A stretch of 51,728 bases of DNA from a virus. How positions within the stretch are numbered: the stretch's first letter is position 1; every line of letters starts with the position of its first letter. Of this stretch, positions 26,117 through 48,436 are shown piece after piece. The notes under the pieces were generated by a model that was not told the DNA's origin, did not search any database, and worked only from the letters and a program-made list of their open reading frames with translations. The position numbers and the translations under genes are program-made. The stretch is from the IMG/VR virus record IMGVR_UViG_3300042326_001602, positions 1 through 51,728 of that record; one strand, 5' to 3'.

Positions 26117-26435
26117 GATCCTTGCTCTCTTGGAGGGACTGAACGAGCTTGGACGTCGAGCTGATCTTCACCGTCTGGTTGCCCTCGACGTGCGTGATCT
26201 CGGCGTTCCGGCTCTGAATGATACCGTTGATCTCCGCCGTCTCCCTCACGACGCCGCGCAATTGCTTCATCGCAGCCATCGCCACCTTCGGGTCGGGATC
26301 ACGGCTGAACTCGACCAGCCGCTCGACCTCCTCCCGCACCTCCCACCCGCTCGCCTTCAGCGCGAACGCAACGCCATCAAGCCCGAAGTACGAGCGAATC
26401 GTCTCATCCCCGGACTTTGCTGGAAGCTGCTTCAA
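26055..26435 (-). CDS. Possible small terminase subunit, 126 aa
   Basis: The start is TTG at 26435, joined as TTGA to the stop of the 678-aa gene, with GAGGTGG upstream. The helical sequence includes SYFGLDGVAFALKASGWEVR and VERLVEFSRDPDPKVAMAAM, plausible for a small oligomeric DNA-recognition subunit; a C-terminal linker leads to PESLPFAAQFIPARNS. The 62-bp overlap with the next gene is unusually long. The terminase assignment is inferred from position only. Confidence 0.5.
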   Translation of the reverse strand: MKQLPAKSGDETIRSYFGLDGVAFALKASGWEVREEVERLVEFSRDPDPKVAMAAMKQLRGVVRETAEINGIIQSRNAEITHVEGNQTVKISSTSKLVQSLQESKDHVQVPESLPFAAQFIPARNS

Positions 26436-28468
26436 CGCCCACCTCGCTTCCGAGCCATCCTTGAGAACAGGGTTTCCTTGACGCTAGGTCCCTTGCCTGG
26501 TCGCTTGTAGATTGGCTTTCGGGAAGCCGGACCAACGCTACGAGGCTTAGCCGATTCACTCCGAATTTCGGGGACAGAGGCGCCAGCATTACGGGTCTCA
26601 ACAAGTCTCATACGCCCCGAAGGGCCGTAGTACTCGGTTACGTCAACAGGCAGGTGGGGCCCCATCTCCCTCGGATTCAAGACCGCACCGTGAGAAAGAA
26701 GGATGGAACGAAGTCGATCCATCTTCTCCGCAGGAGAGAACTCGGTTCGGGCCCTGCGCTTTCGGGCAAGAGCGCGGACTTCAGCAGGCGTAATCTCGGG
26801 GCCAGCACCGCGTGGCTCGGGCGAAATCTGCGGCTGCGGCTTCTTTCGACTGGCAGCACCCTTTGCTTCACGTTCCTTCCGCTCGCTCTCCATCAGGTTG
26901 AGAACGGTCTGGCGCAAGGTGTCTCCGCTACCAACACCCTCAGCCTTGGCCTTCTCTACCAGACGGCGCAGCTCGGCAACTCGCTTTGAGGTGAACTTGG
27001 GCTTTCTCCGCCCGACGACTCCGCCAGGCACCTGCTCAAGGCGACCTTCCTTCAGGTCTTCAATGTCCTTACGGGACATCCGCATCTTCGGCCGAGCCTT
27101 CTGCACGGCAAAGGCAAGCTCGGTGGGGGTCTTGCCGAGCGCCTTGGCCTCGCGCCCGGCGCGGCCGCGCTGCTTCTCCTCAACGCTCTTTACCTTCTTC
27201 GACTCAACGCCGGTAACGGGATTGGTTGTACGGCTGGGCTCGAAGGTTCCCTTGGTGCCGAACATCTTGTTCAGCGTGCGCTGAAGGAGGATTGCCGCCT
27301 TGGCGTTTCCTTCCTTCGCCATCTGGTTCAGCCGAAACAGCTTTGACTTCTCGAACGGAGGACGGCTGGCTTCGGGGAAGGCCGAGCGCTCGTTGTACAT
27401 CTTCTCAAGCAAGCTGTTGCTGTAATACCTGATCTTCCCGTCCTTGAACGTCCAATTGAGCGGCTTGCCTCCGCTGTCGGTCTTGCGGTCGTACGGCTTG
27501 GTAAGCACGCGATCGCCGGGCTGCGGAGTCCCCACCATCCGAACCTTGCCGCCAGTGGCACCTGGTCCCTTGTAGGGCTCGTCGGGAGTACTTGCGCGCT
27601 CCTCCCGTTCCTCTGCGCCCTTGGCCTGAACCATCAGGCTCTCAAACATTTCCTTGCGCTTCTCCTTGTTGAGGCGTCCGCGCATGCGCTTCTCGACGGT
27701 AATGAGCTCCTTTGCGACCTTGCGCTTCGCATCCTCGAGCATCTGCTCGACCTGCGGAGGCGTTCGGTTCATCTGCTCCGCAATGTCGTAGATGTTCTGC
27801 TTGTGGCGAATGGAGAGCATCAGCGCCTGTCGCTGCTCTTCCGGCAGCGCGTCGATGATCTTGTTGATTGCGCCACTCTGGAGAAGTTCCGTGACGGGAG
27901 CGCGGGTCACGCCCTTGCGCCTGCCGCTGGGCAGTGGAACTCGGTCTGCCTTGTCCTCGCGCTTGATCACGCGATCGGCAAGCTTGCGACCGGCATCGCT
28001 GTCAAGGGCTTCGATTGCCGCGTCATACAGTCGGGGAGGAAGAGACGTCTCAATTCCCTGACTTGCCTTCTGGTTCTTGCGGAGACCTCGGATCCGCTTC
28101 ATCGCCTCGACTTCTTCACCGGTGCCTGGATCCCGCTCGCCGGCAATTGGGTAGCGCTCGTCGATCTTCTCAAGCGGATCAACAAACTGCTTGACCCGGC
28201 TAGCAGCGTCCTTTCGCTTGATCACGTCCTCGAGGTTGAATAGAACGGCCGCAAGTACAGGAGCCCTGTCCGGCGTGATGTCCTGGTTTTTGACAAGCTT
28301 GTTTACGAGAAGGCGAACCGTGTTCTTTCCGAAGGGATCCTTGGCCTTCGCCATCAGCTCAATAGCCATCTGAATCTCGGCCTTGGAAAACGTATTGGCC
28401 TTGTTCGGGCCAATAGGCTTCTTGTAGCCACCATCAGAAGGAATTGTTTTAGGTTCCCTGCTTGCCAT
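26432..28468 (-). CDS. Basic 678-aa protein with sigma-region-4-like HTH
   Basis: Residues 203-257 (about 27698-27862) read KIIDALPEEQRQALMLSIRH, then KQNIYDIAEQMNRTPPQVEQ and a basic helix MLEDAKRKVAKEL. This closely follows sigma-70 region 4 grammar: LPEEQR.AL.L, an IAE.M....VE.ML helix-turn-helix, then a basic helix. The remaining sequence is extremely Lys/Arg-rich and low in hydrophobics, with motifs such as KTPTELAFAVQKARPKMRMS. No clear region 2 is visible. It could be a late-transcription factor or a DNA-binding virion protein using a sigma-like fold. It lies upstream of the terminase genes. Confidence 0.6.
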   Translation of the reverse strand: MASREPKTIPSDGGYKKPIGPNKANTFSKAEIQMAIELMAKAKDPFGKNTVRLLVNKLVKNQDITPDRAPVLAAVLFNLEDVIKRKDAASRVKQFVDPLEKIDERYPIAGERDPGTGEEVEAMKRIRGLRKNQKASQGIETSLPPRLYDAAIEALDSDAGRKLADRVIKREDKADRVPLPSGRRKGVTRAPVTELLQSGAINKIIDALPEEQRQALMLSIRHKQNIYDIAEQMNRTPPQVEQMLEDAKRKVAKELITVEKRMRGRLNKEKRKEMFESLMVQAKGAEEREERASTPDEPYKGPGATGGKVRMVGTPQPGDRVLTKPYDRKTDSGGKPLNWTFKDGKIRYYSNSLLEKMYNERSAFPEASRPPFEKSKLFRLNQMAKEGNAKAAILLQRTLNKMFGTKGTFEPSRTTNPVTGVESKKVKSVEEKQRGRAGREAKALGKTPTELAFAVQKARPKMRMSRKDIEDLKEGRLEQVPGGVVGRRKPKFTSKRVAELRRLVEKAKAEGVGSGDTLRQTVLNLMESERKEREAKGAASRKKPQPQISPEPRGAGPEITPAEVRALARKRRARTEFSPAEKMDRLRSILLSHGAVLNPREMGPHLPVDVTEYYGPSGRMRLVETRNAGASVPEIRSESAKPRSVGPASRKPIYKRPGKGPSVKETLFSRMARKRGGR

Positions 28469-30162: not shown

Positions 30163-31578
30163 ATGACAGACTGGTTGCAGCAGCCGTTGCAGTCCCTCGA
30201 GCCCGTGAAGGTCGCGAGGAGAATCCTGCAGAGACAGTTTACAGCACCCGGCGGAATGCGCGGGCTATGGAGATGGAAGAATGACTGGTGGAGCTGGGAG
30301 GGCGGAACGTGGCGCGTCCTCGACGAGGAGCGGATCAGGGACCGTGTGTGGCTCGTGCTCGAGGATGCCGTGTTCGAGCGGCAGACCCAGAACGGGCCAG
30401 TGCTGGTGCGGTACAGCCCAGACAAGCAGAAGGTCGACGGGGTCGTCCGTGCGCTCGAGGCGCTGGTTCGCATCGAGGCTGAGGAGGTTCCGCTCTGGCT
30501 TGCGGAGCCGGATGAGCGGTTCCCCGTGGGGTCGACTGTTGCTTTCCGAGATCGGCTGGTTAATGTAAGGACGCTGGAGACCATGGAGCGACCGGCGAGG
30601 TGGTTTGACACGGCCATTCTGCCGGTGACGTACCAGCCAGATGCCCCCACCAGCCGTTGGTTGCAGGCGGTGTCGGAGTGGGGTGAGGGTGATCCCGTGT
30701 GGGCTGAGCTGCTGGCGCGGTGGATGGGCTATTGCCTCATGGGTAGCCGTCAGTATGCGCGGTGGATGCTCATGTACGGGAAGATCCGTGGGGGTAAGGG
30801 CACGATCAGCAGCGTGATCCGGAAGTTGGTGGGGCGCGATGCGTTCATGGGCGCGAGCCTGGAGGACCTGGCCGGCGGGTTCGGCATGGATGGGCTTGAG
30901 CGCACGAAGGTGCTGAGCATCAACGAGGTGAGTGAGCTGGATGGGAAGAGCGGCGAGCGGGTGTGCCGGGTGGTCAAGAACATCGTTGGCCGGGACCCGA
31001 TGACCGTGGATGCAAAGTACATGAGGCAGCAGCGGAACGTGATCGTGAACGCGGCGGTCATCATGCAGAGCAACGAGATCCCCGTGCTGCCCAATAAGGG
31101 GCGCGGGTTGAGTGGGAAGATGCTGGTTCTGCCTTTTGAGGTCAGCTTTGAGGGCAAGGAGGACCTGGATCTGGAGGGGGAGCTGGATCGGGAGTTGGCG
31201 GGGATTGCGGCGTGGGCCGTGGCTGGAGCGCATCGGCTGGAGAACAGCCGGGCGTCAGAGAGGTGGCCGGTGCCGAAGGCTGCGGAGCGGGCGGTGCACA
31301 TGTACCACCTGCAGAACAACCCGTTCGATGCGTTCCTCGAGGCGCGGTTCGTGCAGCGGAAGGACGGGTTCGTGAGCAATGGAATGGTCCGTGCGCAGTG
31401 GGAGGCGTGGACCAAGGCGAACAAGATCCGGATGCACGTGGCGAATAACATGCTGCCGATGAAGATCGCGCAGGGCAGCAGCTGGGACCTGAGGCAGGTG
31501 CGGCTGGCTGAAAGTCAGGGGCATGAGCGGGGAATTGCTGGGATGAGCCTCCGGAAGGAGTACGATGATGAGCACTAG
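30163..31578 (+). CDS. D5/P4-type superfamily-3 DNA helicase, 471 aa
   Basis: Walker A is GKIRGGKGT at residues 206-214, the Arg-Gly-Gly-Lys-Gly form seen in D5-like helicases. Walker B-like LSINEVSEL lies at 251-259, and the SF3 motif C-like segment MQSNEIPVLP at 301-310, followed by the arginine-finger-like KMLVLPFE. The N-terminal 160 residues carry a D5_N-type region (WRWKNDWWSWEGGTWRVLDE). No archaeo-eukaryotic primase domain or DnaG-like Toprim is visible, so it is probably a helicase that depends on host primase or on the phage polymerase. First gene of the rightward arm. Confidence 0.8.
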   Translation: MTDWLQQPLQSLEPVKVARRILQRQFTAPGGMRGLWRWKNDWWSWEGGTWRVLDEERIRDRVWLVLEDAVFERQTQNGPVLVRYSPDKQKVDGVVRALEALVRIEAEEVPLWLAEPDERFPVGSTVAFRDRLVNVRTLETMERPARWFDTAILPVTYQPDAPTSRWLQAVSEWGEGDPVWAELLARWMGYCLMGSRQYARWMLMYGKIRGGKGTISSVIRKLVGRDAFMGASLEDLAGGFGMDGLERTKVLSINEVSELDGKSGERVCRVVKNIVGRDPMTVDAKYMRQQRNVIVNAAVIMQSNEIPVLPNKGRGLSGKMLVLPFEVSFEGKEDLDLEGELDRELAGIAAWAVAGAHRLENSRASERWPVPKAAERAVHMYHLQNNPFDAFLEARFVQRKDGFVSNGMVRAQWEAWTKANKIRMHVANNMLPMKIAQGSSWDLRQVRLAESQGHERGIAGMSLRKEYDDEH

Positions 31579-31586
31579 GAGGCCCG

Positions 31587-31838
31587 ATGAACCCAGACCA
31601 GAACGAGATGATGGGCTGCGAACAGGTGATGGGGGTGGTGATGGGCGATGTCAGCCAGAGGGCGAATGCCGCATTGAAGTATCTGGACTGGCTCGAGGGG
31701 GTGACTGGGCCACGCTGGATTGGTACCGACAAGGGAGCCGTCAAGCAGGACGGACGGAAGGCAAGCGACGGCGAAATTGAGGTCCGGAAGGCAGCTCTGC
31801 ACTATTTGCGGCTGCACTTCCTGGGCGAGATGGACTAA
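31587..31838 (+). CDS. Hypothetical protein, 83 aa
   Basis: It starts 9 bp after the helicase stop with ATG behind AGGAGGCCCG, a good ribosome-binding site. The N-terminus is Met/Gln-rich; a helical body (ANAALKYLDWLEG; EVRKAALHYLRLHFLGEMD) follows. No family is recognised. It is the last gene before the strong terminator at 31862. Confidence 0.65.
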   Translation: MNPDQNEMMGCEQVMGVVMGDVSQRANAALKYLDWLEGVTGPRWIGTDKGAVKQDGRKASDGEIEVRKAALHYLRLHFLGEMD

Positions 31839-31861
31839 ACTAGGCCTCTTCTCTCCATGCG

Positions 31862-31897
31862 CCCCCTGCCGTTCTCGGACGGTGGGGGGTGTCTTTT
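31862..31897 (+). terminator. Rho-independent terminator after the helicase gene pair
   Basis: CCCCCTGCCG (31862-31871) pairs with CGGTGGGGGG (31880-31889), including two adjacent G-U pairs in RNA. The 8-nt loop is TTCTCGGA and TGTCTTTT follows. Confidence 0.8.
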
Positions 31898-32060
31898 ATG
31901 CAGGGGGTGGGTGCATATGCAGGGATGATACCGGGGGTACCGGACTGACCTGTGCGTTTCTATCCTTTATATATATATGTCTCTACGTAAGAAAGAAGGG
32001 TTGGTATTACTGGTACGGGTTAGGGATTTGGTAGGGAATTTTGAGAGGGATTGACCCTTT
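31898..32060 (+). promoter_or_regulatory. AT-rich island: candidate promoter region or replication origin
   Basis: Inside the 467-bp gene-free gap 31839-32305. It contains the 10-bp palindrome TGCATATGCA (31912-31921), an inverted CCGG repeat around GGGTA (31932-31944) and an alternating (AT)n run at 31966-31978, then A/G-rich direct runs. It is the clearest low-GC patch in the window. Such patches serve as DNA-unwinding elements or strong -10 regions; I cannot distinguish these by eye. Confidence 0.45.
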
Positions 32061-32207
32061 CCCCCACAGGCTGACGCCACGCCGGGGGCCGCGCCCCCCT
32101 CCGCTGCGCACGCCTACACAGCCAGCCTACCGCAGGCCGATAACACACGCCACAGGCACGCAGACCACAGCCGTTGACGCTCACGCTCTTGCGAGTCGGC
32201 AAGGATC

Positions 32208-32243
32208 CTCCCCCCCTGCTGCGAGGGGGGAGATGTCTTTTCT
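32208..32243 (+). terminator. Terminator-like hairpin before the 134-aa gene
   Basis: CTCCCCCC (32208-32215) pairs with GGGGGGAG (32225-32232); ATGTCTTTTCTTT follows. The rest of the gap (32061-32207) is GC-rich with short inverted repeats such as GGGGGCCGCGCCCCC and no convincing gene. Confidence 0.75.
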
Positions 32244-32284
32244 TTCCGCACGTCGCGGATACGGCATCTTCCTCTATACCACAC

Positions 32285-32305
32285 GTTCCGCGAAAGGAAC
32301 ACGCC
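32285..32305 (+). promoter_or_regulatory. Hairpin-embedded Shine-Dalgarno leader
   Basis: GTTCC (32285-32289) can pair with GGAAC (32296-32300), placing the AAGGA ribosome-binding site partly in the stem; the loop is GCGAAA. The ATG at 32306 follows five bases later. The related leader at 32883 has the compensatory version GTCC/GGAC. Confidence 0.6.
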
Positions 32306-32710
32306 ATGAAGCAGTCCGAGTTCGCCGCCATCGTCGCCTCGCTCCAGTCCGAGATCGCCTCGCTCAAGCAGCAGGTCGCCGCCCGCCCCGCGATGGAGCG
32401 CGACACCACGGTCGTCGTCGTCGACCGCCTCGCGCCGTCGGAGTCCGGCAAGCCCCGCGTCCGCGTCCGCATCAGCAACACGGGCGCGAAGCCGATCGTC
32501 GTGCAGCCGGGCACCGAGCACTCGTTCTTCGCCAACGAGTTCGTCCGCGACATCAGCGGCGGCAAGCGCAACGGCTTCTACTGCCGCCCGATGACGGACG
32601 GCGTCAAGCCGATCGGCGAGCAGCAGGGCTCGCCCGCCGCCGCGAACGCGATCGCCGCGGCCACGCCTGCGCCGGCGCCGGTCGCGTCTGACGACGATCA
32701 GAAGTTCTGA
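32306..32710 (+). CDS. Hypothetical protein, 134 aa
   Basis: The ATG at 32306 is set by the CGAAAGGAACACG leader. Residues 1-30 form a helix/coiled coil (IVASLQSEIASLKQQVAARP); 35-110 form a beta-rich domain (TTVVVVDRLAPSESGKPRVR ... GKRNGFYCRPMTDG); the C-terminus is an Ala/Pro linker ending in SDDDQKF. The acidic tail recalls SSB-type tails, but the core does not match an OB fold that I can recognise. Strong codon bias and a private leader suggest high expression. Confidence 0.65.
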   Translation: MKQSEFAAIVASLQSEIASLKQQVAARPAMERDTTVVVVDRLAPSESGKPRVRVRISNTGAKPIVVQPGTEHSFFANEFVRDISGGKRNGFYCRPMTDGVKPIGEQQGSPAAANAIAAATPAPAPVASDDDQKF

Positions 32711-32726
32711 GCCGATGCAGCGGGAG

Positions 32727-32752
32727 GGGGGCTGGAGCAATCCAGCCCCCTT
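32727..32752 (+). terminator. Perfect GNRA-loop hairpin terminator
   Basis: GGGGGCTGGA (32727-32736) and TCCAGCCCCC (32741-32750) enclose a GCAA tetraloop, 15 bp after the stop of the 134-aa gene. Only two T residues follow, so it may mainly protect the mRNA 3' end. Confidence 0.7.
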
Positions 32753-32815
32753 CGCGCCGGCTAGCGCCTGGGCGTCCCTGGGGCGACCTTTCCCACCCCG
32801 CCGTCTCTGCTGTTT

Positions 32816-32850
32816 CCCCCTCTCTCTGGGGAGGGGGTGTTTTCTCTTTC
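32816..32850 (+). terminator. Second terminator before the 127-aa gene
   Basis: CCCCCTC (32816-32822) pairs with GAGGGGG (32831-32837), then TGTTTTCTCTTTCC. A second, perfect 8-bp hairpin follows at 32854-32873 (GACGCAGC, GCGT loop, GCTGCGTC). Together they separate two small expression units. Confidence 0.7.
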
Positions 32851-32882
32851 CCCGACGCAGCGCGTGCTGCGTCCTCACCACA

Positions 32883-32902
32883 GTCCGCGAAAGGACACGA
32901 CC
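32883..32902 (+). promoter_or_regulatory. Hairpin-embedded Shine-Dalgarno leader, second copy
   Basis: GTCC (32883-32886) pairs with GGAC (32893-32896) around GCGAAA; CACGACC leads to the GTG at 32903. The stem differs from that at 32285 by a coordinated change on both sides, which supports pairing. Confidence 0.6.
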
Positions 32903-33286
32903 GTGCACAAGACGAACGAACTCACCGACTTCCTCCACGCCGCAATCACCGCTCAGAAGGTGATCATCGAGCGGCAGGCGGACCTGATCCAGCGCCAGAT
33001 GGAGATGATCCGGACGCTCATGTCCGACCAGCGTCAGATGGTGCAACTCGTCAGGACGCTGAGCCTCGACACCGTCGCCCAGAAGAACGACTACACCGCC
33101 CCGGAGGTCGTCCTCGACGGCAGCGCCGTCAAGTGGGAAGACGACAAATCGGAGGACATGGACCCGGAGCCGCACGGCAGCCGCGACCCCATCGGTCCGC
33201 GTGACCTGATGCCCGAGTGCCAGGCCTGCGGCAACTCCGTCCCGCTCGACGCCGACTGCCGGTGCTCCGGCTGCGGCAACGGCTGA
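32903..33286 (+). CDS. Coiled-coil protein with C-terminal zinc ribbon, 127 aa
   Basis: It starts with GTG at 32903, placed by the conserved leader. Residues 1-55 form a helical, amphipathic coiled coil (IIERQADLIQRQMEMIRTLM). A linker of acidic and Pro residues follows. The C-terminal 24 residues hold a Cys cluster: ECQACG (C106, C109), DCRCSGCG (C119, C121, C124), typical of a small zinc-binding ribbon. First of three consecutive small Cys-rich proteins with the same type of leader. Confidence 0.65.
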   Translation: MHKTNELTDFLHAAITAQKVIIERQADLIQRQMEMIRTLMSDQRQMVQLVRTLSLDTVAQKNDYTAPEVVLDGSAVKWEDDKSEDMDPEPHGSRDPIGPRDLMPECQACGNSVPLDADCRCSGCGNG

Positions 33287-33323
33287 TCCACCGGGGCGAT
33301 GCGACCGCCCCATTCCCCCACCA

Positions 33324-33339
33324 TCCGAAAGGACACGAC
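33324..33339 (+). promoter_or_regulatory. Shine-Dalgarno leader, third copy
   Basis: TCC-GAAA-GGA (33324-33333) forms a minimal GNRA-loop hairpin; CACGAC then leads into the ATG at 33340. Confidence 0.55.
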
Positions 33340-33504
33340 ATGAAGACCTGCCCCAACTGCGGCGGAAACATCATCGGTGACGGCGTCACCACCCCTCTCG
33401 CCTGCGAGAACGTCGACACCGCTCTCGTACCCGAAGAAGTCGACGGCGACATCATCTTCTGCGACCGCTCCGAGGACTACGAAGACCAGGTCCTCCCACG
33501 CTGA
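33340..33504 (+). CDS. Small Cys-containing protein, 54 aa
   Basis: It begins MKTCPNCGGNIIGDGVTTPL, a CxxC zinc-ribbon-like start (C4, C7), with further Cys at ACENVD and IFCDRS. The rest is acidic (DRSEDYEDQVLPR). Start fixed by the conserved leader. Likely a metal-binding mini-protein; function unknown. Confidence 0.6.
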   Translation: MKTCPNCGGNIIGDGVTTPLACENVDTALVPEEVDGDIIFCDRSEDYEDQVLPR

Positions 33505-33521
33505 ACCCACCCACACCCACC

Positions 33522-33535
33522 CCGAAAGGACACGC
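33522..33535 (+). promoter_or_regulatory. Shine-Dalgarno leader, fourth copy
   Basis: CCGAAAGGACACGC immediately precedes the ATG at 33536; CC and GG can close a GAAA loop. Confidence 0.55.
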
Positions 33536-33685
33536 ATGGACAACCCAACCCGGTGCGAGTGCTGCGACAAGGAGTTCACCGACTCCGACGACGCCTGGCC
33601 CTGCACCCACCACGAGCCGGACGGAACCCCCGACACGTACTACCTCTGCCGCAACTGCATGGGCGTCGACCCCAAGGAGACCTGA
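33536..33685 (+). CDS. Small Cys/His protein, 49 aa
   Basis: The sequence holds CECCDKEF, WPCTHHEP and YYLCRNCM, giving CxCC, CxHH and CxxC clusters suited to a zinc-finger-like fold. It ends 1 bp before the next gene. Start placed by the conserved leader. Function unknown; probably nucleic-acid or protein binding. Confidence 0.6.
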   Translation: MDNPTRCECCDKEFTDSDDAWPCTHHEPDGTPDTYYLCRNCMGVDPKET

Positions 33686-33686
33686 C

Positions 33687-33902
33687 ATGGACCCGATCAT
33701 CTACCTCACCATCTCGCAGACCCAGGGACAGGCCGTCATGCAGATCACCGGCCAGCGCATCCAGGACCTCTCGGAACGGCTCACCTACGACCACACCACC
33801 ACGTCCCGCTCCGACCTGCTCTGCCAGATCAAACTCCTCACCGAAATCATCGCCGAGGTCAACCACGCCATCCGCCGTGCCGATGAAGCCAAGACGTTCT
33901 GA
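33687..33902 (+). CDS. Hypothetical protein, 71 aa
   Basis: It starts with ATG 1 bp after the previous stop, behind AAGGAG. A short beta start (MDPIIYLTISQTQGQ) is followed by a helix (TGQRIQDLSERL) and a second helix (LLCQIKLLTEIIAEVNHAIR). No family is recognised. It is co-transcribed with the Cys-rich trio and ends at a terminator. Confidence 0.6.
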   Translation: MDPIIYLTISQTQGQAVMQITGQRIQDLSERLTYDHTTTSRSDLLCQIKLLTEIIAEVNHAIRRADEAKTF

Positions 33903-33913
33903 CTTCCTCCTTT

Positions 33914-33953
33914 CACCCTCTCTCCTGTGGAGAGGGTGTTCTCTTTCTTTCTT
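33914..33953 (+). terminator. Terminator
   Basis: CACCCTCTC (33914-33922) pairs with GAGAGGGTG (33930-33938); TTCTCTTTCTTTCTT follows. A strong intrinsic terminator. Confidence 0.8.
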
Positions 33954-33987
33954 ACCCCTGGGACTACCACTCCCACCTCGTTCTCCT

Positions 33988-34043
33988 CCCGTGCGGGGGG
34001 AGTGCTTGCGCACCCCCCGCACGGGGGTGCAACCGTTTCTTTC
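33988..34043 (+). terminator. Very stable terminator before the second SSB-like gene
   Basis: CCCGTGCGGGGGG (33988-34000) pairs perfectly with CCCCCCGCACGGG (34013-34025), 13 bp, then GTGCAACCGTTTCTTTC. The pyrimidine-rich tract that follows carries the CGGAGA ribosome-binding site for the gene at 34076. Confidence 0.8.
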
Positions 34044-34075
34044 TTCTTACTTCTTTCCTTACTTCGGAGATTGCC

Positions 34076-34678
34076 ATGACTGAGATCAAGTTCGACTCGC
34101 TCGCCAACGCCGACTTCGGCACGTTCGCCAACCCGACGCCGACCGACTACCCGGCCGGCCGCTACTCCGCCACCATCAACCGCGTCGTGCCCCAGACCGC
34201 CGACAAGTCCGGCAAGTTCTGCCTCCGCTTCCAGGTCCAGATCGCCGTCGACAAGTTCGAGGGCAAGCCGCAGCTCCGCCTGAACGACTTCGTCTCCTTC
34301 ACCGGACCGAACGGCTTCATGTGGGCTGGTGCCAACGTCTTCTGCGACCTGGCCGTCATCTCCGGCCTCGACCGCGACGAGGTCTACGCCAGCTGCAAGA
34401 ACCTCGCCAAGGCCCTCGAGTCCGGTGACATCCTCGCCATCCGCGACACCTTCCTCGCCTTGGCCGAGGTCGCCAAGACGTTCGTCGGCTCCCGCATCGC
34501 GCCCAACATCGCTTGGACCGAGGACGGGAAGTTCGCCAACGTCAGGGGCAGCAAGACCGTGCCGTCCTATGTCTCCGCCCGCAACGAGACCGACCCCGGC
34601 GCCTCGTTCACCGGCGACGACTGCGACATGGAGCGACAGCCCAAGCCGAAGCGCAACCTGAAGGCTGTCCGCCGCTGA
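34076..34678 (+). CDS. SSB/DUF669-like protein, 200 aa (putative)
   Basis: The opening half has an OB-fold-like alternation of strands with YPAGRYSATINRV and FCLRFQVQIAVDKFEGKPQL; helices follow (EVYASCKNLAKALE; IRDTFLALAEVAKTFV), and the C-terminus has a basic tail (ERQPKPKRNLKAVRR). The opening pattern parallels the 173-aa SSB-like protein at 51182 (WPAEGQHEVFVSSLNVR ... ISFRYQLI). A single-strand-binding or recombination-mediator role is inferred. It follows a terminator and a pyrimidine-rich leader, the same layout as at 51182. Confidence 0.5.
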   Translation: MTEIKFDSLANADFGTFANPTPTDYPAGRYSATINRVVPQTADKSGKFCLRFQVQIAVDKFEGKPQLRLNDFVSFTGPNGFMWAGANVFCDLAVISGLDRDEVYASCKNLAKALESGDILAIRDTFLALAEVAKTFVGSRIAPNIAWTEDGKFANVRGSKTVPSYVSARNETDPGASFTGDDCDMERQPKPKRNLKAVRR

Positions 34679-34692
34679 TCCATCCGCTCGCT

Positions 34693-34727
34693 CCCCCACC
34701 GGCCTCTGCTCTGCACGCCGGTGGGGG
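34693..34727 (+). terminator. Hairpin after the second SSB-like gene
   Basis: CCCCCACCGGC (34693-34703) pairs with GCCGGTGGGGG (34717-34727), an 11-bp perfect stem with a 13-nt loop. No T-run follows; the next leader (GCGAAAGGAATCCG) begins 9 bp later. Confidence 0.65.
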
Positions 34728-34750
34728 ACGGGCATCGCGAAAGGAATCCG

Positions 34751-35350
34751 ATGTCCACCCACAAGCCAATGCTCCCCTCGCTCGCCGTCTCAGCCCTGCT
34801 CGTCCCGCTTCCATTCTCGTCCTGGGTCGTCCGCCACGCGGAGATCGACGCTCACACCCCGTCCACCCTGCCCAACCTCCCGCTCACCGAGGACCACCGT
34901 CCCTACCTCTCGCCCCCATCCTCCGACGCCATCGAGCCCATCCCGTTCCCGGCCGAGGACGACGGCACCTTCGCCGAGGAGTTCTCGTTCCGCGCCGCAT
35001 GGGAACTGACCCGATCGCTCGAGTCCCTGCCCCCAGCCTGGCGCTCCGCGTACCGTCGCTGGAACCGCACCCTCTCCGAGCAGCACCGACTCTCGATGGC
35101 CGCAGGCGGAGCGCACCGCTTCGCACAGCACGAGCCCATCGTCATCCACACTCCGCCCCGTCCTCCAGCCCCGACCGTCATCCTCTCCGGCCACGCGACC
35201 GATGTCCGGCGCGCCATGCGTTCGCGCCTGTACCGCCGGCTCGGTATCGTCCGCTGCGCCCGCACCAATCGCCTTGCCCGCGACCCCGACTCGTCGTGGA
35301 CATCGCACGCACCACTCGACCGCCGCGTCCTGTGGGCGCAGCCCTCCTGA
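34751..35350 (+). CDS. Hypothetical protein, 199 aa
   Basis: ATG at 34751 follows the AAAGGAATCCG variant of the conserved leader. The N-terminal 27 residues are apolar with Ser/Pro (PSLAVSALLVPLPFSSWVV) and could be a signal or membrane segment. A long Pro-rich, acidic linker follows, then a basic Arg-rich helical C-terminal half (RSAYRRWNRTLSEQHRLSMA; RRAMRSRLYRRLGIVRC). No family is recognised. Confidence 0.55.
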   Translation: MSTHKPMLPSLAVSALLVPLPFSSWVVRHAEIDAHTPSTLPNLPLTEDHRPYLSPPSSDAIEPIPFPAEDDGTFAEEFSFRAAWELTRSLESLPPAWRSAYRRWNRTLSEQHRLSMAAGGAHRFAQHEPIVIHTPPRPPAPTVILSGHATDVRRAMRSRLYRRLGIVRCARTNRLARDPDSSWTSHAPLDRRVLWAQPS

Positions 35351-35489
35351 TCCGTCGACAGCCCTCCGTAACTCGGTGGCGTCCCATAGGGACAATGCCT
35401 TCCCGTAGTGGAAACAACCGATGGCGGGCAACCGTAGCAGCCAAAGTCCCGGCTAGCCGTACGACCCAGGGCAACTGATCCTTTCGCAT
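35351..35489 (+). other. Gene-free stretch with short inverted repeats
   Basis: About 140 bp without a supported gene. It contains GTCCC-ATA-GGGAC (about 35382-35394) and several short GC pairings, so it may be transcribed as a structured 3' region or small RNA. No tRNA cloverleaf fits. It ends in the terminator at 35490. Confidence 0.4.
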
Positions 35490-35545
35490 CCCCCGCGCAG
35501 GGCCGCGTTGCGTCCCCTGCGCGGGGGACTTCTTCTTTTCTTGTC
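35490..35545 (+). terminator. Strong intrinsic terminator
   Basis: CCCCCGCGCAGGG (35490-35502) pairs perfectly with CCCTGCGCGGGGG (35515-35527), 13 bp, followed by ACTTCTTCTTTTCTTG. The next gene starts at 35568. Confidence 0.85.
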
Positions 35546-37319: not shown

Positions 37320-37560
37320 ACCAAGCCACCTTGGACCAGCCCGTCGGCCGCGACCTGGTCCGCGTGGGGCGCACCGCAGATCCTCTGCCCGTACAGCGGA
37401 GGGAAGGTGCGTCCGTATCCCACAGCCACCCGTCCTCCTCTGAGCACCGTCGCCTCTGCTACTCCCTGCCGTGATATCCGCGCACAGTACGCACGCACAC
37501 TACGGTCACCACGATAAGGCTCTGGCTGGTGGGGTACATTCATCAACCCCGAGGTCACAC

Positions 37561-43156: not shown

Positions 43157-43879
43157 GTGTCCCAAGTCACGGTCCTGATCGACAGCCGAGAGAAGAAGCC
43201 CCTGACCTTTCCGGCCCACCTCGTGGTGCTGGACAGGGCACGCCTGCCCACCGCCGGTCGGTCCCGCACAGTCACGGTCCGCACGCAGTCTGAGACCATG
43301 AAGACTGGGGACTACCGGTTGGTGGGGGGCAAGGCGGCAATCGAACGCAAAGGCTCATTCGAGGAGATCGCTGGGAACTGCCTAACTACTGACGGCAGAA
43401 GGCGTTTTATTGAATGCTGCCGCAGGCTTCGAGATGACGTGCAACATGCCTGCCTCCTGTTTGAGGGCGCAATCGGGGGGTTTGAAGTACGGGCTGGACT
43501 TCCGCACCCGGGTGTTGCAGCGGATGCTTTATTGGATATCATCGGGGCGTTCGGATTGCCGATTATTCTCATGCCCCTAGCGACGGTCGGCCAACGAAGG
43601 GCTGCAGGGGAATGGGCTCTGAGATGGCTGATCTCGAAGGAACAAGCAAATGACCTCAGTCCAGATCTACACAAACACAAGCTCGGCACACTTTGCGACG
43701 ACGACCGGAGGGCCGGATGGTGCGAAGTTTGTAGCCGCTCTTGTTGCGGCTGCGGACACGCCGGCGTCTCATCTTCCGCAAGCAACGAAGCCGGACGCGA
43801 CAAGCCATCCCAATTCCCTGTTCACTGGCAGCAGCCTGAACTACCTCCGGATCAAGCTTCTGACAACGGGGTCGGCTAA
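43157..43879 (+). CDS. ERCC4/XPF-type nuclease, 240 aa, overlapping the next gene
   Basis: A structure-specific nuclease fold. Motif residues: VLIDSREKKPL (6-16), GDYRLVG (51-57), IERKGSFEEIAGN (62-74), the classical ERCC4 GDY...IERK signature. It starts with GTG at 43157. Residues 165-240 overlap the following structural gene by 230 bp; this tail (HKHKLGTLCDDDRRAGWCEV onward, Cys/Ser-rich) looks like a shadow of that gene rather than evolved protein. A shift of frame just before 43650 would end the protein at an ATGA overlap (...LEGTSK stop). Likely roles: recombination, repair or replication fork processing. Confidence 0.75.
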   Translation: MSQVTVLIDSREKKPLTFPAHLVVLDRARLPTAGRSRTVTVRTQSETMKTGDYRLVGGKAAIERKGSFEEIAGNCLTTDGRRRFIECCRRLRDDVQHACLLFEGAIGGFEVRAGLPHPGVAADALLDIIGAFGLPIILMPLATVGQRRAAGEWALRWLISKEQANDLSPDLHKHKLGTLCDDDRRAGWCEVCSRSCCGCGHAGVSSSASNEAGRDKPSQFPVHWQQPELPPDQASDNGVG

Positions 43880-48363: not shown

Positions 48364-48416
48364 CGCTCCCCCCTAGAGTCGCGCATGCGGGGGAGCGCTA
48401 CGCGCCCCGCATGCGC
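48364..48416 (+). promoter_or_regulatory. Two mutually exclusive hairpins: possible leader switch
   Basis: Stem A: CGCTCCCCC (48364-48372) with GGGGGAGCG (48389-48397). Stem B: GCGCATGCGGGG (48381-48392) with CCCCGCATGCGC (48405-48416), 12 bp perfect. The two compete for GGGG at 48389-48392. Stem B ends eight bases before AGGAG of the nuclease gene at 48437. This is the layout of an attenuator or translational switch. Confidence 0.5.
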
Positions 48417-48436
48417 TCACCCCAGGAGTCCCACCT

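What the first reader, a model, noticed from the sequence alone, without database searches (positions are those of the whole stretch)
31862..35545. Seven strong hairpins in 3.7 kb separating tiny genes
Hairpins at 31862, 32208, 32727, 32816, 33914, 33988 and 35490, plus one at 34693, cut the region into single- or few-gene units; most are followed by a TGT(C)TTTTCTTTCC-like tail. This is unusual in a compact phage and implies unit-specific promoters or RNA processing and stabilisation in an early, highly expressed region.
Basis: partly seen in the sequence, partly recalled or inferred. Interest (0 to 1): 0.6.

Follow-up and report, generated by a model that had tools for sequence, protein, structure and literature searches.

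The report
Phage gene-end hairpins with swapped genes
In an uncultivated phage family, most small genes in one early block are closed by a strong RNA hairpin just after the stop codon, and evolution keeps the hairpins folded while the genes around them are swapped; this points to transcript-end control, a known kind of device used unusually densely.

Summary
The hairpins are real. Eight strong folds lie at the stated places, and the four most stable 50-nt folds on the + strand of the 51.7-kb window are all in this block (0 of 200 shuffles reach the observed number). Relatives from public viral contigs keep hairpins at the same gene junctions, with compensating base changes in the three I could align. 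Across nine genomes, 45 of 64 genes in the block have a strong hairpin starting 3-25 nt (median 12) after the stop codon, against 9 of 51 genes elsewhere in the window. The hairpins are therefore mainly gene-end elements. They are not uniform: five have an adjacent T-rich tail (terminator-like), one has a T/C tract set off by about 10 nt, two have none. No sigma-70-like promoter lies in any gap, and one junction is too short to hold one, so unit-specific promoters are not supported. I favour partial terminators plus mRNA-end-protecting hairpins, read through from one conserved leader upstream. The gaps also mark where gene content and identity change between relatives. Function is inferred; there are no transcript data. 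A separate, nearly invariant structured element at 37.41-37.54 kb deserves its own study.

The parts
31859..31892 (+). H1: terminator-like hairpin closing the primase operon, 20 nt after the stop at 31838, tail CTTTTATG
   Evidence: stem sequence differs in relatives while pairing is kept by eye
31900..32070 (+). conserved AT-rich leader block with repeated GGTACC/TACC words; only candidate promoter region of the block, or a replication origin
   Evidence: alignment of 15 sequences; GC skew changes sign near 32.0 kb
32208..32232 (+). H2: hairpin with tail ATGTCTTTTCTTTCC in the leader of the first gene; replaced by unrelated hairpins in relatives
32245..32259 (+). small second hairpin between H2 and the ribosome-binding site; relatives have GYGTT-loop hairpins here
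32306..32710 (+). gene, 134 aa, no family match; first unit
32717..32761 (+). H3: very strong hairpin 6 nt after the stop, no T tail
32816..32837 (+). H4: terminator-like hairpin, tail TGTTTTCTCTTTCCCC; its 3' arm could instead pair with the tail
32854..32873 (+). small second hairpin with GCGT loop upstream of the next start
32903..33286 (+). gene, 127 aa, C-terminal two-CxxC (zinc-ribbon-like) motif; family F4
33340..33902 (+). three tiny genes (33340-33504, 33536-33685, 33687-33902) with no strong hairpin between them
33914..33938 (+). H5: terminator-like hairpin, 11 nt after the stop, tail TTCTCTTTCTTTC; absent from some relatives
33985..34027 (+). H6: 13-pair GC-rich stem upstream of the DUF669-like gene, followed by a conserved TTGCAC..CGTTTCTTT-type tract
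34076..34678 (+). gene F1, 200 aa; weak similarity to DUF669 (PF05037, below the curated cut-off)
34691..34728 (+). H7: 12-pair stem with a conserved 3x1 internal loop and an upper stem; no T tail; 22 nt before the next start
34751..35350 (+). gene F2, 199 aa
35351..35479 (+). extra stretch of about 130 nt, found only in the window and its near-identical contig; it moves H8 away from the F2 stop
35489..35528 (+). H8: 14-pair stem with internal loop and 3-pair upper stem, tail CTTCTTCTTTTCTT; stem sequence rewritten in relatives with pairing kept

Best explanation
The block is a transcript-end punctuation array. Shown: strong hairpins start about 12 nt after stop codons, and at three junctions they are kept by compensating changes. 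Inferred: RNA polymerase starts at the conserved leader (31.90-32.07 kb) and runs right. Hairpins with adjacent T-rich tails (H1, H2, H4, H5, H8) act as intrinsic terminators of intermediate strength that release part of the polymerases. Hairpins without such tails (H3, H7, and H6 with its displaced T/C tract) mainly cap and protect RNA ends or serve as processing sites. The result would be short, protected mRNAs in graded amounts for the tiny genes and the DUF669-like replication gene. Because the gaps isolate genes transcriptionally, cassettes can be exchanged there, which would account for the mosaic relatives.
For: 45 of 64 genes in the block over nine genomes have a hairpin at or below -18 kcal/mol starting 3-25 nt after the stop (median 12), against 6 of 29 late genes and 3 of 22 right-hand genes of the window (Fisher p = 2.3e-8). 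Compensating changes: H8, 8 of 17 pairs changed on both sides, 97.8% of cells paired; H6, 5 of 13, 100%; H7, 3 of 15, 98.0%. Relatives carry further gene-end hairpins with TTTCTC-type tails after other accessory genes. No promoter-like site in the gaps. Only one conserved AT-rich block, upstream. Identity between window and L022 is 88-100% up to 32.05 kb, low or absent to 33.65 kb, 82-88% over 33.7-33.9 kb, about 70% over 34.05-35.35 kb and 90-100% after 35.6 kb, so steps fall in hairpin-bearing gaps.
Against: No transcript data. T-rich tails are imperfect (C-interrupted), and for H8 they fade in some relatives (2 to 7 T in the first 10 nt). H2 tails are missing in several relatives. H7 and H3 lack tails, so a terminator role fails there. 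Three tiny genes share a unit without strong hairpins between them. Strong terminators in series without promoters would starve downstream genes unless they leak or are overridden. The identity steps could reflect recombination in any intergenic gap.
Confidence: 0.55

Rival explanations
1. Processing sites: one long early transcript is cut at the hairpins by a host double-strand RNase (RNase III type), as in the T7 early region, giving short mRNAs with hairpin ends.
For: H6, H7 and H8 have 12-14-pair lower stems topped by internal loops or upper stems that are kept in relatives; H7 has no T tail and no room for a promoter after it; read-through transcription is needed anyway.
Against: Five of eight hairpins have terminator-like tails. 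Stems of 17-18 pairs are short for classic RNase III sites (recalled). No phage RNase III was found among the proteins scanned with Pfam (not every ORF was scanned), and the host is unknown.
Confidence: 0.2
2. Conditional terminators with antitermination: the conserved leader, or the small GYGT-loop hairpins after H2 and H4, load a factor or act on RNA polymerase so that it ignores the later hairpins.
For: A conserved leader precedes the array; in the first two units a small hairpin with a GCGT/GTGT-type loop lies between the terminator-like hairpin and the start in 7 of 11 genomes tested, with different stem sequences; it would explain several terminators in series without promoters.
Against: The small hairpin was not found near a start by that rule in 4 of 11 genomes (L007, L030, L014, L016), though a GCGTA-loop hairpin is visible in L016. 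No antiterminator gene was recognised. The resemblance to HK022 put is only in having two hairpins.
Confidence: 0.12
3. Each unit has its own promoter and terminator (moron-like cassettes).
For: Gene content between 32.1 and 33.65 kb differs even from L022, which is about 94-98% identical in neighbouring stretches; accessory genes are bracketed by hairpins in relatives.
Against: Best -35/-10 match in the six gaps is 7 of 12 or less, none above shuffles; 22 nt between H7 and the next start; no conserved sequence directly upstream of H6 in the alignment. A sigma-like region-4 match in the 26432-28468 protein leaves a non-standard promoter open.
Confidence: 0.1
4. DNA-level role: the palindromes are junctions for recombination or mobile repeats, and RNA folding is secondary.
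For: Identity steps coincide with hairpin gaps; H6 alleles do not follow F1 similarity (H6 is 95% identical to the more distant L011 but 66% to L006 and L007; F1 identities 59, 73 and 74%).
Against: A degenerate H6 pattern scanned over the viral contigs was found only in four contigs already known as relatives, so it is no dispersed repeat; position just after stops and one-sided T tails point to transcripts.
Confidence: 0.03

Closest known systems
Intrinsic (Rho-independent) terminators of phage and bacterial operons
   Same: GC-rich hairpin after the stop codon followed by a T-rich tail at H1, H2, H4, H5 and H8
   Different: Tails are C-interrupted, three hairpins lack an adjacent tail, and several stand in series without detectable promoters between them
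RNase III sites of the phage T7 early region (PMC9135205, passages read: 10 RNase III cleavage sites in T7, six sharing an intergenic region with a promoter)
   Same: Intergenic hairpins separating small genes and setting transcript levels
   Different: No promoters found in the gaps; stems shorter; cleavage untested
Extended start-associated sequences of Cluster K mycobacteriophages (PMC3203893, passages read)
   Same: Inverted repeats near starts of genes in the non-structural part of the genome
   Different: There, according to the paper, the arms gave little support for RNA pairing; here they covary, and position follows the upstream stop codon. The 13-bp sequence is absent
HK022 put antitermination RNA (PMC9378689, passages read)
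   Same: Two hairpins in an early leader ahead of terminators
   Different: No sequence or structural match was tested; small second hairpins here recur at more than one unit
Mimivirus hairpin rule for transcript ends (PMC4402537, passages read)
   Same: Palindromic hairpins at gene ends, conserved as structure and not as sequence
   Different: Virus of eukaryotes with its own RNase III-like enzyme and poly(A) polymerase; none recognised here

Membership tests
Intrinsic terminator | GC-rich hairpin of several pairs | tested here: met
   All eight; above shuffles as a set
Intrinsic terminator | T-rich tract directly after the stem | tested here: inconclusive
   Met for H1, H2, H4, H5, H8; not met for H3 and H7; displaced about 10 nt for H6. 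Orthologues: mean T in first 10 nt 4.75 (H8, 8 sequences), 2.7 (H6, 9), 1.7 (H7, 10)
Intrinsic terminator | RNA 3' ends in the T tract | not testable with these tools
   No transcript data
RNase III processing site | long stem, often with internal loop, kept by evolution | tested here: inconclusive
   12-14-pair lower stems conserved by compensating changes; total length short
RNase III processing site | cleavage in the stem | not testable with these tools
   Needs RNA from infected cells or purified enzyme
Moron-type cassette | accessory gene absent from close relatives at the same junction | tested here: met
   32.1-33.65 kb, window against L022
Moron-type cassette | own promoter | tested here: not met
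   No sigma-70-like site above shuffles in six gaps; other promoter types untested
Cluster K ESAS | 13-bp start-associated sequence GGGATAGGAGCCC | tested here: not met
   0 matches in the window with up to two mismatches
HK022 put | specific two-stem RNA that antiterminates | not tested
   No Rfam family reached its gathering score in the window, but whether Rfam holds put was not checked
REP-like dispersed palindrome | many copies across unrelated loci | tested here: not met
   Degenerate H6 pattern found in four viral contigs, all relatives

The most novel reading that the evidence does not exclude
A bacterial virus family with a general hairpin rule for its early mRNAs: gene after gene is closed by a hairpin conserved as structure rather than sequence, which a dedicated host or phage activity recognises to make defined short mRNAs, with a leader element deciding read-through. 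Exchangeable genes plug in between hairpins without disturbing their neighbours.
Probability: 0.12. Interest if true: 0.7.

Novelty: new variant of a known kind. Interest (0 to 1): 0.42.

Why it matters
It shows, by comparative evidence, that most small genes of an early phage block can carry their own structure-conserved end hairpin, and that these gaps are where relatives differ in gene content. If the mechanism holds, it explains how phages add and swap tiny genes without breaking an operon, and gives a compact set of natural terminators or mRNA-protecting ends.

Tried and rejected
Host and relatives: no near DNA match in GenBank phages for 28-40 kb; no tblastn match there for the F1 protein or the terminase; only distant DNA polymerase matches. 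Neither F1 nor the primase has a relative in the bacterial and archaeal genome contigs, so the host stays unknown. Rfam: no family at the gathering score in the window; the weak matches in 31.8-35.6 kb are far below the cut-offs and were ignored. Start-associated repeat: CGAAAGGACACG occurs three times exactly, but its 10 matches with up to two mismatches are within chance (8 of 100 shuffles reach 10); I treat it as a ribosome-binding site. Alternative pairing of the H4 3' arm with its own tail is seen in several leaders but is also expected from purine-rich arms beside pyrimidine-rich tails; not pursued. The mobile-repeat idea is weakened. Literature searches turned up no description of this phage group or array; that covers only the held open-access library and those terms.

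Limits of the counts. For one search I used nine genomes (window, L022, L006, L007, L010, L011, L030, L014, L016) and left out L024, L012, L013, L008, L009, L015 and L005 as near-duplicates or fragments, and the more distant clade L036-L042. Stops came with hand edits: the window's 32710, 33504, 33686 and 35843 and L011's 5937 were taken or the tblastn match; ORFs that looked spurious (for example L007 6166-6294, L010 6628-7029, L030 7730-7852, window 33936-34079) were dropped. The control genes are a hand gene map of the window only. The relatives share ancestry, so the 64 genes are not independent and the Fisher p value is only a guide.
Full report
WHAT IS THERE. The window is a 51,728-base virus record. 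By the ORF map its genes from about 1.3 to 30.1 kb read leftwards and include a terminase. From 30.16 kb genes read rightwards: a primase (30163-31578), a conserved 83-aa gene, the hairpin block, then genes for a uracil-DNA-glycosylase-like protein, a DNA polymerase, an exonuclease-like protein and a Sak4-like protein. The eight hairpins of the finding fold as described, and as a set they are far above chance: 8 folds at or below -24 kcal/mol in six gaps against 1.49 in shuffles, none of 200 shuffles reaching 8; 4 at or below -32 against 0.055. H1 and H2 alone are not exceptional for their gap.

THREE KINDS OF HAIRPIN. H1, H2, H4, H5 and H8 are scored as terminator-like by a simple scan. H3 and H7 have no T tract. 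H6 has a conserved TTGCAC..CGTTTCTTT-like continuation in which the T/C tract begins about 10 nt after the stem.

RELATIVES. Twelve viral contigs encode the 200-aa F1 protein and 22 the primase; the two sets overlap. Identity to the window ranges from 100% to 55% for F1 and to 65% for the primase. At the same junctions the nearer ones carry hairpins. Counted on alignments: H8, 8 distinct sequences, 8 of 17 pairs changed on both sides, 97.8% of cells paired, 21 doubly changed cells against 5.7 in shuffles. H6, 9 distinct, 5 of 13, 100%, 13 cells against 4.0. H7, 10 distinct, 3 of 15, 98.0%, 5 cells against 0.9 (the number of doubly changed pairs alone is reached by 16 of 500 shuffles, so H7 is the weakest). 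Sliding the partner by one to three columns lowered pairing to between 40 and 81% in all three. H1 varies with pairing kept by eye only. H7 is also conserved in sequence: 89-92% identical to the window in 5 of 7 relatives, while the flanking genes are 69-80%; in L014 and L016, where the upper stem is longer, it is 55-61%. The more distant clade (primase 65-67%) shows fewer strong hairpins after the primase, so the dense array belongs to the nearer relatives.

POSITION. In nine genomes 45 of 64 block genes have a hairpin at or below -18 starting within 30 nt of the stop, offsets 3-25, median 12; late genes 6 of 29, right-hand genes 3 of 22 (p = 2.3e-8, with the genes not independent). In the window itself the count is 3 of 10 at this threshold, with H5 (-16.3) just outside it and H8 displaced 138 nt by an extra stretch found otherwise only in the near-identical contig. 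The gap from hairpin to next start varies widely (for example 22 nt after H7, about 70 nt after H2). The hairpins therefore belong to gene ends rather than gene starts. H6 follows the upstream stop directly in L007, L010, L011 and L030, and comes second after H5 or its counterpart in the window and L006.

PROMOTERS. No gap contains a sigma-70-like site better than shuffles, and one search lists none between 30139 and 37904. Between H7 and the next start lie 22 nt holding the ribosome-binding site, so F2 must be read through H7 or from a start inside F1. The one conserved AT-rich block lies at 31.90-32.07 kb, with repeated TACC/GGTACC words and a change of GC-skew sign: candidate early promoter, replication origin, or both. 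Caveat: the host is unknown, and a phage protein (26432-28468) has a sigma region-4 match.

GENE EXCHANGE. L022 is nearly identical to the window left of 32.05 kb and right of 35.6 kb, but has other genes at 32.1-33.65 kb, 82-88% identity at 33.7-33.9 kb and about 70% over F1 and F2; the steps fall in hairpin-bearing gaps. Gene order is F0-H1-leader-H2-F5-type gene-hairpins-F4 (two CxxC motifs)-variable tiny genes-H6-F1-H7-F2-H8 in the genomes compared, with individual families missing or unrecognised in some (for example L030).

MECHANISM. Most likely a read-through operon punctuated by partial terminators (T-tailed hairpins) and by end-protecting or processing hairpins (tail-less ones). Shown: position, structure conservation, absence of sigma-70-like promoters, mosaicism. 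Inferred: where transcription starts, termination strength, stability, the function of H6 and H7. Rivals are listed with their tests. The array is best filed as an unusually dense variant of known transcript-end elements, not as a new class.

LITERATURE SEEN. Passages only, found by term search: PMC3203893, PMC9378689, PMC9135205, PMC4402537. Others appeared in listings only. Statements on RNase III stem length and on moron structure are recalled.

Noticed in passing
window 37405-37545: Nearly invariant structured element between genes. A 27-nt stretch and a 19-nt stretch are identical across most relatives; a 22-nt core occurs in 15 stretches of viral contigs, one from a contig whose primase is only 66% identical. 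It folds with a closing helix (96.6% of cells paired over 15 distinct rows, 4 of 31 pairs changed on both sides) and stands before different genes in different phages. No Rfam or GenBank-phage match. Candidate new phage RNA or replication element.
   Followed up: partly
window 31900-32070: Conserved AT-rich block with TACC/GGTACC repeats next to the primase operon; GC skew goes from +0.27 to negative at about 32.0 kb. Possible replication origin or early promoter.
   Followed up: partly
window 35351-35479: Stretch of about 130 nt present only in the window and its near-identical contig, absent from other relatives, no match in GenBank phages.
   Followed up: partly
window 32903-33286 and 33536-33685; relatives L006, L007, L010-L012, L014, L016: Tiny proteins with two CxxC motifs recur in the block in most relatives; possible zinc-ribbon regulators.
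   Followed up: no
window 26432-28468, minus strand: 678-aa protein with a sigma-70 region 4 match above the Pfam cut-off; could direct phage-specific promoters.
   Followed up: no
window 48371-48420 and 277-370: Further very strong intergenic hairpins outside the block.
   Followed up: no
window 43157-43879: ERCC4-type nuclease-like protein (the Pfam match is just below its cut-off).
   Followed up: no
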